Virus record (IMG/VR): IMGVR_UViG_3300049032_000128
Span: 1-21,424 of that record
Length of the DNA: 21,424 nt
Strand: one strand, 5' to 3'
Source: a virus
This document shows positions 13,101 through 21,422 of the stretch, one piece after another (position 1 is the first letter of the stretch; each line of letters opens with the position of its first letter). Position numbers and translations under genes: made by a program. The notes below the pieces were generated by a model. That model made no database searches. It was not told where the DNA came from and was given only the letters and a program-made list of their open reading frames with translations.

Positions 13101-13263
13101 AGAATCGCAGAGGCAGGCGATTCCTTCTCCTCCTGTTGGCTTGGTGGTTTATCAAACAGACGTCGGGGATGGCGGGCCAGGGTATTACGGGGCTCAAGGT
13201 GTGGATGGGGGCGCTGCAATTGCGTGGGTACGATTCGCCTTCGACTTTGTGGATTATATCTAA
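7159..13263 (+). CDS. Fused tail tip / baseplate protein with C-terminal tail fiber
   Basis: A single 2034-aa protein takes the place of several tail-tip genes. Residues 1-~130 look like a distal-tail (Dit-like) domain (ASQVQIGLILKELYDLSEF, then FNKIKWSGWVEPW). Residues ~130-780 resemble tail-associated baseplate proteins. Residues ~845-925 resemble an Ig-like domain (SVISKPTWVSNVTKDELIF). Residues ~926-1290 are three diverged ~120-aa modules, each with a conserved Trp (W956, W1078, W1201). Residues 1429-~1750 are 112-residue fiber repeats with SHTHT metal-binding-like HxH motifs. The C-terminus (~1975-2034) has STTKGVLFPRMTESQR, common at the ends of Bacteroidota phage fibers. It would contact the cell surface and determine host range. 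The start ATG lies inside the tape measure's last codons. Confidence 0.82.
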   Translation: MGLKYFSKFSDVDGNGREVRFFNDAFSGSPIEWINSSGAIRYRVGDSDSLFPDQPIIASQVQIGLILKELYDLSEFVFDRKTFFVQIVDTDFNKIKWSGWVEPWNAAHKYVDPPHEVTLTASCGLAHLSRKKYVNPSNTFRKTGLTIIQECLGIIEAGDLALRLSTHMVENSFSGNAVLGLTSFEIDTQRYYDNNGEAMYCDVIVNDILNHFNAELVQWDNKWVIRGVVDHATALQTNYQDIGDTSGTLAWPGTYSVNGSQSKSLDDGQIRVLAPITKYRTEIDFGQQTPFFENGSLLLWNENGLIGWDFTHMTKGNPGWEQFELGGESNKSVLKINGKSPQPYRKRKKVKLFKKLTNQAINIAIAGVGAVGALFNKPVLKGAWEDIEPAEWIESPGGPISKADKSVTISFEYETEAFSSDILISIKIPVTKPNGDVVNFWVDPSSQPALNSADKTHAGADDKFHLIRVPPVDRGSLINRGDLNAASNPNYPAASAANWTWTVTGVPSGEYRKVGGVNGVNVENGDLIISRVPNVGGTQEAVGGNFEIVSIRNNIRKGTYQIAVSLNTTFLSSANQPFPADKVYVRFYKIADEEGRPGDWYKIYDLNGQLEGFVASTESSKYATTLERGGKTDEEAQAIQLISGDFTPWYLGAWRKPGSNDLTSSWKRRSFMNEGMSIYRAMMLDRLCMTSRPLNVFEGQIKLLPGYTELSYLHRLSFVDQDDKRFRIVRYEFEDYRRIATITAVEIKYEEIPKEELRQDSYIPGSHQLNTIPGQGDGIYPSKQDSTNGRLNAEDLPLTEDELLEVLESGSRLGVLFDEIDPLVFEVGSLSTKYRNLADYLSEVFLENEDEFEDEDTTDFAALEFSVISKPTWVSNVTKDELIFGVTGKPTAIGQFILQIGLFDPEEPEFIIPVEIPIIVYPKTTIKYTLRDTSGLEPIGVGNIVNGSGHMKPDAWDILVQVTGHHEGWFGKVSGMGINIQPTADPYSLVSSSDTATYIIGSDIESDVGIYNLIVATFRDEGEPDNLKKVKEDKIKFSLYDEEYLDKAQFELWGTESNTLIGPIDPDGSSAFNVEEAWDVKMIIEGVEHDAGSSVLGSEVGDLDTNVIGPLDPAVEDASYFQLGEVRPEFDPSAYNVLLTLSLEGDEQYARSATFTINKDKVKPVGGNLKLVSMITNTTNYDVMGTLAINGNLFTLPSSGWNVLLESNVVAGAIRKHQVFQKKGDSLININTQLYTGKSQTKSYPESAPEDQYFIFDFLSSLDIDKIHLTPSSFRVIITDEVDGVVTNIYQADFSFGVLEDLDDLDISEPGNAGDGVQEHLAGFGLSEVIDDYIKTFNVNTDNLTIEVFSPTNPAFNWLRVKAKGITHAHYQDIASLSILGNLGGSAGSPYEVPIITSITLAGASNLNIATTLAVKTYVDTALALKPTGNGLLNRFVVWTGTNTQASSNLFYNGGNVGVGMIPGYQFDVLGAIRCSTQFASTMPTGFAPIDVTSTTLCTNLNADLLDGFHASAFALASHTHTIAQVTGLQASLDSKVINFGNGVANRFALWVDNTQIGNSNLYYNAGNIGVGMVPGYQFDVAGSIRFTNQLASTIATGTAPLDVTSTTLCVNLNADLLDGFHASAFALASHTHTIAQVTGLQASLDSKVINFGNGVANRFALWVDNNTIGNSNLYYNSGNIGVGMVPGYQFDVSGSIRYSNQLASTVGTGTAPLDVASTTLCVNLHADYLSKSVIAGSGLTGGGLLTSNVTLNVAFGFTAGTAAEGDDLAALIARNITVNGTSGRISSSAGAQNLSADRSWTLDLVATGVAASTYKSVTVDVYGRVTGGSNPTTLAGYGITDAYVITDVNYLLDFKADKSTVLTINGVGYDLSANRTWNVGTISGSATTGYFPKMATSASITDSVMRDTGSEINVGAGRSFGVEGPAAMRDYLHVHNYVGIGKSGQHGALVIHSASSATAHATAAIDIQSTTKGVLFPRMTESQRQAIPSPPVGLVVYQTDVGDGGPGYYGAQGVDGGAAIAWVRFAFDFVDYI
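11443..12375 (+). repeat. 112-residue tandem repeats in the tail fiber
   Basis: Units begin at 11443, 11779 and 12115, exactly 336 bp apart. The third is shorter, diverging after VNLHADYLS. Each unit reads GNGxxNRFxxW, then NL(F/Y)YNxGN(V/I)GVGM(I/V)PGYQFDV, then DVxSTTLCxNL. The first two continue with the HxH segment SHTHTIAQVTGLQASLDSKV. The junction segments from NADLLDGF to WVDN are identical over 53 residues in two places yet differ at most wobble positions. Confidence 0.9.
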
Positions 13264-13288
13264 TTGTGCGACAAACAGACCTTTAAAA

Positions 13289-13452
13289 TTGTGAGTGGCG
13301 GCGACTCGGTATGACTTGTAGAGAAGATAGGTTTTTCCTTCATCTTGGCTTAGTAAAATACGTCAACATCGCCTATCCAGGGTACACTTAATGGTCTTAT
13401 AGATTATATCTTCAAGCTGGCCTAGTAATTTCCCTGGCTTCGCCACTCACAA
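13289..13452 (-). ncRNA. Candidate bridge RNA of the IS110/IS1111 element
   Basis: Directly after the transposase stop codon the minus strand can fold into a ~164-nt closed structure. The basal helix is TTGTGAGTGGCG (13452-13441) with CGCCACTCACAA (13300-13289), 12 perfect pairs. Inside are two adjacent hairpins. SL1 is 13437-13377, stem CCAGGG/CCCTGG. SL2 is 13376-13327, stem ATAGG/CCTAT. SL1 holds a large two-sided internal loop (15 nt at 13431-13417 and 13 nt at 13395-13383) capped by an apical helix at 13416-13396. Two hairpins with big internal loops are the known layout of target- and donor-binding loops. IS1111-type elements encode this RNA 3' of the transposase. This was inferred by hand folding only. 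Confidence 0.5.
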
Positions 13453-13455
13453 AAT

Positions 13456-14466
13456 CTATTCGGAATACAGCGAATCGTGATTCACACAAGCAAAAACTCG
13501 ATGGACTAGTTTGTTTTTGATTGCGTTTAAAATCGACATACTATGTTTGCCCTCTGTTTGCTTACGTACATAATATTGGCAAAGGAAACTATCCTTTCGC
13601 CGAAGGCAACCGATTGCTGCCAAATGAAGATTTGCCTTAATCTCCTTGTTTGCAAAAGTTGATACTCTTGCCCTTCCTAACTGTACTCCTCCCGAGGACC
13701 TTTCAAATGGTGCAATTCCACAATAGCAGGCAAATTGCCTAGCAGTAGCAATTTTATGGAATTCATTGGTGTGGATAATGATTTGTATCGCGATAATTTG
13801 TCCGATGCATGGAACCGAAGTAATAAGGCCGACCAATCGGGCTAATTTTGGGTCTGAACGAACTACGGAATCTAGCCGAATATTGACAGCTTTAATATCC
13901 TCGTTTATTGCTGCGACGCTTCGCGAAAAGTTTTCACTAAGCTCATAACTACGCTGCTTACTTAAAAAATAATCGTTGACCTTTACTTCGCCGAGGAGAA
14001 TTTTTCGTGTTTTCAGCAATCTGTTACGAATAGCTGTCAATTTTTGTAACAATACAAGACATTCTCGAGGCGGCTCGAACAACCTCACCCGATCGATGTT
14101 TTTCTTTGCATATTCTGCGATTCTTACTGCGTCGATTTCGTCATTTTTGCCGCGAGCAATCCCGAGAGATTTCTTGATTTGTAAAGGGCCTTCAAGCCAT
14201 AACGGAATTTTTTTTCGCAAGGTCTCCTTAATTAGGAAGTGGCAAAAGACGCCCATATCTTCTGCACAGACCAGCATTTCATTTGGGCGGCACCGCAGCT
14301 CTGAAATTTGCTGTCGAAGAAACTGTCGAATCGCTTCCTCGGTATGAGCTATTTTGTGAGTACTGATCGGAAGATGAGGTCCCAACACCGCAACATCGAT
14401 AGTGTACTTGGAAATGTCCACTCCAAGAACCGCTTTGGGTATCAGCCGCTTCGTAGTTTGTTCCAT
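13456..14466 (-). CDS. IS110-family transposase (DEDD recombinase)
   Basis: The 336-aa protein has the two-domain IS110 layout. The N-terminal RuvC-like DEDD domain shows GVDISKYTIDVAV (D17), CAED (E69) and KNDEIDAVRIAEYA (D109/D112). A coiled linker spans about residues 120-215. The C-terminal IS116/IS110/IS902 domain has LVGLITSVPCIGQIIAIQII, then FACYCGIAPFERSSGG, which carries the expected catalytic Ser. All key residues are present, length is normal and no frameshift is seen, so it is probably active. The ATG at 14466 lies 23 nt after the stop of the upstream gene on the same strand. The protein acts with an element-encoded bridge RNA in this family, and the candidate RNA follows its stop codon. 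Confidence 0.95.
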   Translation of the reverse strand: MEQTTKRLIPKAVLGVDISKYTIDVAVLGPHLPISTHKIAHTEEAIRQFLRQQISELRCRPNEMLVCAEDMGVFCHFLIKETLRKKIPLWLEGPLQIKKSLGIARGKNDEIDAVRIAEYAKKNIDRVRLFEPPRECLVLLQKLTAIRNRLLKTRKILLGEVKVNDYFLSKQRSYELSENFSRSVAAINEDIKAVNIRLDSVVRSDPKLARLVGLITSVPCIGQIIAIQIIIHTNEFHKIATARQFACYCGIAPFERSSGGVQLGRARVSTFANKEIKANLHLAAIGCLRRKDSFLCQYYVRKQTEGKHSMSILNAIKNKLVHRVFACVNHDSLYSE

Positions 14467-14489: not shown

Positions 14490-14852
14490 TCAGTATTTTC
14501 TTGGTCGCCCCCGCTTTTTAGGAGCCGGATCCGAGCTAGCGCCCAATTCCAACGCACGCACTTTTTTAATTTCATGATCTAACCTCACCTGCAGCTTTTC
14601 TATTTCCTGTTTCAATGTTGGCGCCGATCCTTCCTCAATTAGCATTTCCCCTTTACCCCGGATTATCCATTCAGCAGATATGTTCTCATATTTCATCAGC
14701 AGTACAAACATCAAACGATAATCGGACGGAGATATTCGTGCGGCGAGTGTCTGTATTTTCTCGGGTATGCCGGAGATAATTGGTTCGGTGCCATCGCGCT
14801 CATGAATGGTACGGCCGACCGCTTGAAGAGCCTGGATAAGTCTATTTTTCAT
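14490..14852 (-). CDS. Small XRE-like DNA-binding protein with AT-hook-like tail
   Basis: Starting at the ATG at 14852, this gives 120 aa beginning MKNRLIQALQAVGRTI. A TTG 27 nt upstream is possible but less typical. ISAEWIIRGKGEML matches the 'INPEWLLTGKGEML' segment that ends the helix-turn-helix domain of many Bacteroidota phage-type XRE regulators. The recognition-helix region before it looks atypical. A coiled Glu/Lys segment follows (LKQEIEKLQVRLDHEIKKVR). The extreme C-terminus KKRGRPRKY contains an AT-hook core (GRP between basic residues). It may be a prophage regulator. Its stop codon lies 23 nt from the IS transposase start, so the natural C-terminus could have been changed by the insertion. 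Confidence 0.65.
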   Translation of the reverse strand: MKNRLIQALQAVGRTIHERDGTEPIISGIPEKIQTLAARISPSDYRLMFVLLMKYENISAEWIIRGKGEMLIEEGSAPTLKQEIEKLQVRLDHEIKKVRALELGASSDPAPKKRGRPRKY

Positions 14853-15185
14853 GAGACTGGGTGTTTTCTCGGCCGACAAGAATAGAAGGAATCTTGCAAT
14901 AAATCGCAGGCAGACAAGATGTCGAGTAAAGTGCGTACAAAAGGTTTTTCATTCTGATAGGTGTAAGGGTTGCGGCGACGTAATCATACAACTAACCGAC
15001 CAAATCTCAAAATTGATTTATTAACCGTAATTGCAGGAGGCTCAATCGCTTAGATGGGAGGCTGACTACTGAGAGTTCTTAACTGAATGGATGCCGCGGA
15101 ATCTGGAATAACCCGGATTAGCCTGGAATAATGATATTCGGTTTAGGGTAGGGGAGCACTGAGTAAAAAACGGGCTATGTGGCCC
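14853..15185. other. Intergenic region with direct repeats
   Basis: No convincing gene lies in these 333 bp between two minus-strand genes. The region probably holds the promoter of the XRE-like gene. A 9-bp direct repeat CTGGAATAA occurs at 15103-15111 and 15123-15131, 20 bp apart (two helical turns on one face), a possible regulator site. No intrinsic terminator or tRNA was seen. Confidence 0.4.
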
Positions 15186-18465: not shown

Positions 18466-18723
18466 ATGGCATTCACAGCAGAAGATTTCGAAATCGACTA
18501 CTTTGGAGTTAGGCTTCACATTCAAGTACTGGAAATGCAGGAACGAACTGTTTTCCGGGTGATGTTTTCGGACGGGCAGGAAGATTTGTTTATAACCAGG
18601 TCTGCGCTGACCGATGGCAGCAAATACTGGATGTCCGTCCCTGAAGACCCGAAAAGGCAGAATGATGCGGCTGAGATTGGACGGTCGATTGTACATTATT
18701 TTAAATCTATTCGCAATGTGTAA
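18466..18723 (+). CDS. Hypothetical protein, 85 aa, coupled to the SRAP gene
   Basis: The preferred start is ATG at 18466 (MAFTAEDFEIDYFGVRLHI), which follows the A-containing leader AAGTAACA. A longer frame reaching into the previous gene is open but unlikely. The product is 85 aa: a beta-rich N-half (YFGVRLHIQVLEMQERTVFRVMF) and an amphipathic C-terminal helix (AAEIGRSIVHYFKSI). The stop overlaps the SRAP start by 8 nt, so translation of the two is coupled and they may be functionally linked. The family is not recognised. Confidence 0.7.
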   Translation: MAFTAEDFEIDYFGVRLHIQVLEMQERTVFRVMFSDGQEDLFITRSALTDGSKYWMSVPEDPKRQNDAAEIGRSIVHYFKSIRNV

Positions 18724-19582
18724 CTACAACAGGCAAAAGGTTTTGCGTACAGAATATGTTTCCCTAAAAGGACTTGAAAAGGACATTAGGAAATTCAAGC
18801 TCGATCAGGCGAAACCAGTCAATAACGGATTCGACTATGCTCCGGTGTTCGTAATAAAACCTAACTTTTCCAAGAACGACTACGATATCGTTGAAATGGA
18901 ATGGGGGTATTTGCCCAGTTATGTGCAGGATCGAGATCGGGCCCGGGAGTTTCGGAATGGATATAAGAAACCTGATGGTAGTTTTCAACAGGGCATCACG
19001 ACGCTGAACGCACGCGGGGAAGAGTTGCTTTTGGTTGATCCTAAAACGGGGAAAGAAAAAATGTTCAGGGATGCGGCTCTCCACCGCCGATGCCTGGTTT
19101 TGTCAACAGGCTTCTTCGATTGGCGCCATGTATACCGTCGAAATAAGAAGACGGGCGAGCCACTCAAAACGGCTGATAAATATCCCTACTATGTCAACTT
19201 AAAGGATAAAGAATACTTTTTCATGGCCGGGGTTTGGAATCCATGGACTGACCGGAAATCGGGCGAATACATTGAAACGGTAACGATTGTCACGACAGAG
19301 GCAAATAAACTGATGTCCCAGGTTCATAATGCGAAAAATCGAATGCCTACCATCCTTGATGACGATCTTGCATGGGAATGGATTACAGGGAATTTGTCGG
19401 AGCAGCGGATCACGGAAATTGCGACTACTCAATATGACGCAGACAAGATGCAGGCGTGTACAATTGCAGCGAACTTTAGAGAATCGGACGAGCCGACAAT
19501 TCCATTTACATATCCGGACATGCCCCCGTTAGAGCAGACTGTTGCTAATGAAACGCCGCCGACCCAGCTGTCACTCTTTTGA
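18716..19582 (+). CDS. SRAP domain protein (YedK/HMCES-like abasic-site shield)
   Basis: The start is the ATG at 18716, because it exposes the essential catalytic Cys2 (MCNYNRQ) after Met removal. The product is 288 aa. The family covalently links to abasic sites in single-stranded DNA through a thiazolidine and protects them. Other expected residues are visible: Asn98 in TTLNARGEE, and His204 in VHNAKNRMPTIL. At the position of the conserved Glu (GFxEW) it has Asp135 in GFFDW. A ~15-residue basic insertion (RRNKKTGEPLK) follows GFFDW. The C-terminal tail is Pro/Thr-rich and ends QLSLF, resembling the beta-clamp-binding consensus QL(S/D)LF. That feature would place the protein at replication forks. 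Confidence 0.92.
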   Translation: MCNYNRQKVLRTEYVSLKGLEKDIRKFKLDQAKPVNNGFDYAPVFVIKPNFSKNDYDIVEMEWGYLPSYVQDRDRAREFRNGYKKPDGSFQQGITTLNARGEELLLVDPKTGKEKMFRDAALHRRCLVLSTGFFDWRHVYRRNKKTGEPLKTADKYPYYVNLKDKEYFFMAGVWNPWTDRKSGEYIETVTIVTTEANKLMSQVHNAKNRMPTILDDDLAWEWITGNLSEQRITEIATTQYDADKMQACTIAANFRESDEPTIPFTYPDMPPLEQTVANETPPTQLSLF

Positions 19583-20639: not shown

Positions 20640-21422
20640 ATGCCTGAAGTACCAGAATTGAACATAGTAGGTATTACCCTACAAAAGCACTTCAAAGGAA
20701 AGAAGTTTAAGCATATTGACGTCCTATGGAAAAAGCGCGTCAAAGCGAGCAATGAGGAATTTAATGCAGCATTCGAAGGCGCCACGTTACTTTCTGTTGG
20801 CCGTAACGGGAAAGAACTACATCTTCATTTTGATAATGGCCACATTCTCGGGATTCACATGATGCTCACCGGGAAGATGGTATTGCTTCCCACTGATCAG
20901 AATTTAAAAAATCCAATCTTCGAGTTGATGTTCGAGAATGGCTCGGGTATTATGGTGCTGGATGGAATGGGCCAAGCTAAACCGATACTTGATCCCGAAA
21001 TTCCGCCAATACCGGATATCCTAGGCGATGACTTCACTCTTGAATATTTTACCAAGATTTTGTCAAAAACGGGCATCAAGGTCAAAGAGGCGATTCAGAA
21101 ACAGGAATGGATCCGAGGAATTGGAAACGCTTATGCAGACGAAATTCTATGGTCAGCCAAAATCTCACCGTATTCGGTTTCGAAGAACATTCCTGCCGAC
21201 AAAGTGAAGGATCTCTATAATGCGATTCGTGAAGTAACGGTCGAAGCAACCAAAGAATTAGAAAGTATAAAAACCTCTGATGATGTCTTTGAAATGGAAA
21301 ACAAGGATCATCGCTTCGTCCACAACCCCAAACGCACACATTCACCTGAGGGCGAAGAAATTCTAAATGGGAAGCTCGGAAACGGGAAAACGTATTATAC
21401 AGAAAGCCAAGTTCTATACTAA
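20640..21422 (+). CDS. Fpg/Nei-family DNA glycosylase, zincless variant
   Basis: The 260-aa protein starts MPEVPEL, exposing the catalytic Pro2 (Schiff-base nucleophile) and Glu3. Lys58 in GRNGKEL matches the phosphate-contacting Lys of Fpg. The H2TH domain is present (IRGIGNAYADEILW, residues 158-171). Members excise oxidised bases and cut the strand by beta/delta-elimination. Two features are unusual. The C-terminal finger (about 224-260, ending NGKTYYTESQVLY) has none of the four zinc Cys, and Lys replaces the Arg of the beta-hairpin. The DPRRFG void-filling loop is replaced by DGMGQAKP (108-115). It should act on DNA, but substrate choice may differ from MutM. Confidence 0.88.
   Translation: MPEVPELNIVGITLQKHFKGKKFKHIDVLWKKRVKASNEEFNAAFEGATLLSVGRNGKELHLHFDNGHILGIHMMLTGKMVLLPTDQNLKNPIFELMFENGSGIMVLDGMGQAKPILDPEIPPIPDILGDDFTLEYFTKILSKTGIKVKEAIQKQEWIRGIGNAYADEILWSAKISPYSVSKNIPADKVKDLYNAIREVTVEATKELESIKTSDDVFEMENKDHRFVHNPKRTHSPEGEEILNGKLGNGKTYYTESQVLY

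What the first reader, a model, noticed from the sequence alone, without database searches (positions are those of the whole stretch)
13289..13452. Possible bridge RNA encoded directly after the IS110-family transposase stop codon
Seen in sequence: a 12-bp inverted repeat (13289-13300 and 13441-13452) closes a ~164-nt region. Inside are two abutting hairpins, CCAGGG/CCCTGG and ATAGG/CCTAT. The first has a two-sided internal loop with an apical helix, as expected for target guides. Established knowledge: IS110/IS1111 transposases use an element-encoded bridge (seek) RNA with two internal loops, and in the IS1111 branch it lies 3' of the gene. Also seen: the CCTGGATAG at the hairpin junction is the reverse complement of a 9-mer between the transposase start and the upstream gene. 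A 10-mer in SL1, GATTATATCT on the + strand, recurs at the end of the tail-fiber gene (13252-13261). Inference: a self-contained RNA-guided recombination system has landed beside this prophage.
Basis: partly seen in the sequence, partly recalled or inferred. Interest (0 to 1): 0.75.

Follow-up and report, generated by a model that had tools for sequence, protein, structure and literature searches.

The report
Bridge RNA behind an IS110 recombinase
The window holds a small RNA gene directly behind a DNA-recombining enzyme of the IS110 family; the RNA has the two-loop shape expected to tell the enzyme which DNAs to join, and close relatives in the bacterial genus Dyadobacter carry up to four different such RNAs in a row behind one enzyme, which I found reported nowhere.

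Summary
The 12-bp inverted repeat, the region and the first hairpin are real. The region 13281-13452 (minus strand) is a structured RNA, almost certainly the bridge (seek) RNA of the intact IS110-type recombinase at 13456-14466. A covariance model from 22 homologous units shows a three-way junction: the repeat is a closing helix around two stem-loops, each with an internal loop and an AGG...CCT cap. It has 158 doubly changed pair cells, against 70 in shuffles. In 48 Dyadobacter genomes, 21 of 23 model hits lie 3' of this recombinase clade; of the other two, one is a deletion derivative of such an element. Rfam has no match.

Beyond the finding: four of 15 elements carry 2-4 tandem, diverged, mostly intact bridge RNAs with different loops; published IS110 elements are described as having one. 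Guide loops are hypervariable, but no general guide match to element flanks was found, so targets and array function remain open.

The parts
13456..14466 (-). IS110-family (DEDD + Transposase_20) recombinase, 336 aa, intact
   Evidence: Pfam PF01548 and PF02371; NCBIfam transpos_IS110 at 136.4 bits, just under its 140 cut-off; residues D17, E69, D109, D112, S258 aligned with ISCro4
13281..13452 (-). bridge (seek) RNA, three-way junction
   Evidence: model R1 114.5 bits, E 1.5e-26 (window is one of the training sequences); covariation
13441..13452 (-).
   Evidence: 11 of 12 P1 pairs show changes on both sides across relatives
13289..13300 (-). P1 closing helix, 3' arm; sequence similarity to the nearest relative ends here
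13377..13437 (-). SL1: basal helix CCAGGG/CCCTGG, CT/AG pair, internal loop, apical hairpin AGATATAATCT (13401-13411); proposed target loop
13412..13423 (-). SL1 5' loop AGGCCAGCTTGA, proposed guide
   Evidence: position homologous to the target guide next to the apical hairpin in sister IS110 elements with mapped ends; hypervariable
13389..13400 (-). SL1 3' loop ATAAGACCATTA, proposed guide
13300..13373 (-). SL2: basal helix GGCGA/TCGCC, covarying dinucleotide pair CT/AG (13352-13353 with 13315-13316), internal loop, apical hairpin AGGAAAAACCT (13329-13339); proposed donor loop
13340..13351 (-). SL2 5' loop AAGCCAAGATGA
13317..13328 (-). SL2 3' loop ATCTTCTCTACA

Best explanation
13281-13452 (minus) is the bridge RNA of the IS110-group recombinase encoded just upstream of it. 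The transcript is closed by the 12-bp P1 helix and presents two stem-loops whose internal loops pair with DNA: SL1 most likely the target and SL2 most likely the donor or element ends. The recombinase binds it and exchanges strands at a short core, as IS621 does. In this Dyadobacter lineage the RNA gene sits at the 3' side although related IS110 elements keep it at the 5' side, and in several members it has multiplied into tandem arrays of 2-4 RNAs with different loops, so one recombinase can be offered several specificities. Shown: conserved covarying RNA, its tight link to this recombinase, variable loops on a conserved scaffold, tandem copies. Inferred: binding, guide pairing, which loop reads which DNA, and what the arrays are for.
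For: Covariation: 39 of 51 pairs change on both sides, 158 such cells against 69.8 +- 6.5 in shuffles and at most 72 in slid controls. Specificity: in 48 Dyadobacter genomes R1 hits lie behind this recombinase clade in 21 of 23 cases; the other two are a deletion derivative that keeps 24 N-terminal codons and one weak solitary hit. No hits outside Dyadobacter in an order-wide sample, none in sister IS110 loci. Arrays: 4, 3, 2 and 2 units in L056, L058, L055, L053. Loop variability 65-66% against 83% for the scaffold in close pairs. Homologous loop position and the same AGG...CCT hairpin in sister IS110 RNAs, where the 5' strand matches the left flank. Catalytic residues intact in all elements but L054.
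Against: RNA segments show no general match to the flanks of their own element; only L061 stands out, which is about what scanning 22 units could give. No empty site was found for the window. No expression data. Elements are low-copy (1-2 per genome), so mobility is not shown. The covariance model was trained on the units it finds in this clade.
Confidence: 0.88

Rival explanations
1. The element is an ordinary member of the IS1111 group: RNA at the 3' end and the 12-bp repeat a subterminal inverted repeat.
For: The 3' location fits the IS1111 rule (PMC11187229, PMC11208160).
Against: Tree: 99/97 branch separates the Bacteroidota group from IS4321 (though IS4321 is a long branch); the repeat brackets only the RNA, not the element, and covaries as an RNA helix; sister elements are 5'-RNA IS110.
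Confidence: 0.06
2. The RNA and recombinase are no longer mainly a transposon: the guide array serves programmed rearrangements (inversion, deletion, integration) at fixed host or phage sites.
For: Arrays of 2-4 diverged units; in L053 two units share SL1 guides (92%) while scaffold (73%) and SL2 loops (54%) differ; unit pairs kept between L055 and L056; low copy number; no general guide match to own flanks.
Against: Contexts differ between genomes (plasmid, integrase island, next to traG, prophage), as for mobile elements; no target pair was found (one search was negative for one guess at the layout).
Confidence: 0.2
3. The structure is a terminator, attenuator or mRNA-stability element of the transposase mRNA, not a guide RNA.
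For: It follows the stop codon directly.
Against: Conserved three-way junction with two capped internal loops, guide-like hypervariable loops, tandem copies far from the gene, and a homologous hairpin in sister bridge RNAs; no run of T after P1.
Confidence: 0.04

Closest known systems
IS621 / ISCro4 bridge RNA (IS110 group; PMC11208160, PMC11208158, PDB 8wt6 and 9t56)
   Same: DEDD + serine recombinase of the same family (E 1e-9 to 1e-10); RNA with two internal loops; CT dinucleotide in the loop (IS621 core CT, from memory)
   Different: RNA 3' instead of 5' of the gene; closed by a long P1 helix into a three-way junction; AGG...CCT hairpins; in relatives 2-4 RNAs per recombinase
IS1111-group seekRNA (ISEc11, ISKpn4, IS4321; PMC11187229)
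   Same: RNA downstream of tnp
   Different: Different phylogenetic branch; no subterminal inverted repeat at the element ends identified; the repeat here is an RNA helix
IS110-family members with a downstream non-coding region (a group marked in PMC11187229, Fig. 1b)
   Same: IS110-type enzyme with a 3' RNA region, so 3' placement outside IS1111 is already reported
   Different: Whether the same lineage could not be tested (sequences not at hand); tandem RNAs not reported there
Spirosomataceae IS110 elements (L087-L099)
   Same: 36-43% amino acid identity; same apical hairpin AGGTAAAACCTA next to the guide
   Different: RNA upstream; several copies per genome; R1 does not match them
TIGR-Tas arrays (PMC12045711)
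   Same: Guide RNAs in arrays behind a Nop-domain protein; the window enzyme has a weak match to the TIGR-Tas model, 28 bits against a 100-bit cut-off
   Different: tigRNAs are 36 nt and regularly spaced; here each unit is a full two-loop RNA of about 170 nt, irregularly spaced, with a recombinase

Membership tests
IS110-family bridge recombinase | DEDD RuvC-like domain plus Transposase_20 domain with catalytic serine | tested here: met
   NCBIfam IS110 model hit 136.4 bits against cut-off 140, nearest relative L002 above it
IS110-family bridge RNA | non-coding RNA linked to tnp with two stem-loops that carry internal loops | tested here: met
IS110-family bridge RNA | loops complementary to target and donor | tested here: inconclusive
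   no general match to own flanks; L061 only; element ends of the window unknown
IS110-family bridge RNA | expressed and bound by the recombinase | not testable with these tools
   needs RNA sequencing and co-purification
IS1111 group | transposase within the IS1111 branch | tested here: not met
   (one IS1111 reference, long branch)
IS1111 group | RNA in the 3' end | tested here: met
IS1111 group | 7-17 bp subterminal inverted repeats at both element ends | tested here: inconclusive
   the 12-bp repeat encloses only the RNA; ends not mapped in the window
TIGR-Tas | array of 36-nt dual-spacer RNAs with a Tas protein | tested here: not met
   units of about 170 nt; TIGR-Tas model far below its cut-off

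The most novel reading that the evidence does not exclude
A lineage of IS110 recombinases has turned its single bridge RNA into a tandem array of several two-loop guides, so that one enzyme joins several different pairs of DNA sites in trans: an RNA-guided rearrangement system with a CRISPR- or TIGR-like guide library, or a transposon with several alternative targets.
Probability: 0.25. Interest if true: 0.88.

Novelty: new variant of a known kind. Interest (0 to 1): 0.62.

Why it matters
Bridge RNAs are described as one two-stem unit per element (PMC12045711; no array in PMC11208160 or PMC11187229). Tandem, diverged, structurally kept bridge RNAs behind one recombinase would mean natural multiplexing of target and donor choice, would give ready-made orthogonal guide sets for genome engineering, and would be an intermediate between single-guide IS110 elements and TIGR guide arrays. 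The clade also gives a dated case of the RNA moving from the 5' to the 3' side within the IS110 group. All of it is directly testable in culturable Dyadobacter.

Tried and rejected
Guide-to-flank search with exchange controls for all four loop strands, both senses, several flank lengths, split sites and every 9-mer along the RNA: no general signal; the same scoring gave rank 1, 1 and 4 of 18 for three sister elements with mapped ends. A tentative target AACGGAC/GTTA for L058/L061 from flank comparison fits L061 but did not generalise. Empty sites for L056, L065, L058 and the window were sought in 48 Dyadobacter genomes: only partial boundaries. Viral contigs: protein searches found no relative; six contigs with an exact 16-mer of SL2 had neither RNA nor recombinase. 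A guess at a joined target site for L053 found nothing. A protein-only scan of genome contigs found nothing; the two-sequence alignment found 13 relatives. A first structure string for the model had the wrong length.

Full report
WHAT IS THERE. The window is a virus record of 21,424 bases. A tailed-phage module (major head protein, connectors, tape measure and a 2034-aa tail protein with tail-fibre matches) runs to 13263 on the plus strand. On the minus strand lies a 336-aa recombinase, 13456-14466, with the Pfam domains DEDD_Tnp_IS110 and Transposase_20; its nearest solved structures are ISCro4 and IS621. The residues D17, E69, D109, D112 and S258 align with those of ISCro4.

RELATIVES. Phage and plasmid records hold only distant relatives, the best at 44%. 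A scan of genome contigs with a two-sequence alignment gave a 77% relative in Dyadobacter sp. MSC1_007 and others at 44-47%. Search of 48 Dyadobacter genomes gave the rest, and 222 genomes of the family gave an outgroup at 36-43%. Comparing the window with the 77% relative, DNA similarity runs from the recombinase through the RNA and stops at the end of P1, and a second diverged copy of the RNA follows in the relative.

THE RNA. Iterative profile search found 22 units in 15 loci. On a sequence-only MAFFT alignment (A4) the named structure has 78.3% paired cells against 67.6% in shuffles, 39 of 51 pairs with changes on both sides, and 158 doubly changed cells against 69.8 +- 6.5 in shuffles and 44-72 in slid controls. 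The structure was voted from the folds of the same sequences, so the percentage paired leans towards it; the doubly changed cells are the stronger figure. Each stem-loop has an internal loop and an apical AGG...CCT hairpin. At the base of each loop a dinucleotide pairs across the loop: always CT in SL1, with AG opposite in 21 of 22 units; CT/AG, TC/GA, CC/GG and TT/AA in SL2 with a few mismatched cases. The window forms 37 of 51 model pairs. Rfam 15 has no match.

LINK TO THE ENZYME. Model R1 finds 23 hits in 48 Dyadobacter genomes. Twenty-one lie in the 3' region of this recombinase clade, including L066, where another element (IS66-like) has separated the two by 5.5 kb. One is a deletion derivative in G035 that retains 24 codons of the recombinase joined to the second half of an RNA, at the same place as in G002. 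One (G011, 37 bits) is solitary. In 390 genomes of the order the only hits are in Dyadobacter (stricter filters). Sister IS110 loci give none.

POSITION OF THE RNA. For four sister families I compared identical copies in one genome and mapped ends for three well. Their RNA is upstream of the gene, and the strand before an AGGTAAAACCTA-type hairpin repeats the left flank (for example CTACCGCCCGGC in L096). Nearly all sister loci have such hairpins upstream; the window clade has them downstream only. The tree groups the 15 downstream-RNA enzymes (94/93) within the Bacteroidota IS110 set, which a 99/97 branch separates from IS4321 (IS1111 group), ISCro4 and two others. Long branches make the outer order uncertain. 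So the 3' place is not evidence for the IS1111 group here. A downstream region in some IS110 members is already reported (PMC11187229).

ARRAYS. L056 has four units, L058 three, L053 and L055 two. Units of one array are only 55-73% identical on the model alignment, yet all match the model over its full length, most at 107-145 bits (L058 unit 2 at 90; L056 unit 2 and L058 unit 2 look weakest). Units 1 and 2 of L055 correspond to units 1 and 3 of L056 (84-86% identity), so an array predates that split. Remnants in L059 and L061 suggest loss of a former first unit (by eye). In close pairs the proposed guide loops are 65-66% identical and the scaffold 83%. In L060/L063 and L055-2/L056-3 the SL1 loops were replaced more than SL2; in L053 the two units share SL1 loops (92%) and differ in SL2 (54%). 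The papers I could search describe one bridge RNA per element; [quoted passage not shown] The library lacks most subscription papers and preprints, so 'unreported' is limited to it.

HOW IT PROBABLY WORKS. By homology with IS621 (established knowledge, PMC11208160) the RNA bridges target and donor DNA. By homology with the sister elements SL1 is probably the target loop. I could not prove pairing: loops do not match the flanks of their own elements more than those of other elements. Possible reasons are ends that lie elsewhere, flanks that have changed since insertion, or action at other sites. L061 is the one good match (AATGGGCGTAT with AACGGACGTAT). Array function is therefore open: alternative targets for a transposon, or programmed joining of several site pairs.

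VERDICT. A real bridge RNA gene in an unusual place for its branch, in the window itself an ordinary single unit; the notable part is the tandem multiplication in its closest relatives.

Noticed in passing
L056:6311-7377 (minus), L058:8442-9055, L055:6974-7374 (minus), L053:8892-9326: Tandem arrays of 4, 3, 2 and 2 bridge-type RNAs behind a single IS110 recombinase in Dyadobacter.
   Followed up: yes
L110:1501-1682 (minus): Deletion derivative in G035: 24 N-terminal codons of the recombinase joined to the second half of a bridge RNA, next to the same tyrosine integrase as the intact element of L058.
   Followed up: partly
L066:8304-13986: An IS66-like element has inserted between recombinase and bridge RNA, changing the C-terminus of the recombinase and moving the RNA 5.5 kb away.
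   Followed up: partly
L111 (G011:C1:621237-621370): A weak solitary match to the RNA model (37 bits) without a recombinase nearby.
   Followed up: no
L060:4985-6976 oriented (minus strand of L060) and L063:6896-7636: Two elements with different SL1 loops both lie directly behind a traG-like conjugation gene.
   Followed up: partly
L087-L099: Spirosomataceae IS110 elements with an upstream RNA, several near-identical copies per genome, in GC-rich targets such as CCGCACGGGCC.
   Followed up: partly
window 18614-19582 and 20640-21422: Non-phage genes beyond the element, including a likely SOS-response peptidase (YedK-like) and a likely MutM/Fpg glycosylase (by eye), suggesting the edge of a prophage.
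   Followed up: no
window 14490-14879 (minus): Small 129-aa gene upstream of the recombinase, similar by eye to a gene near L057; function unknown.
   Followed up: no
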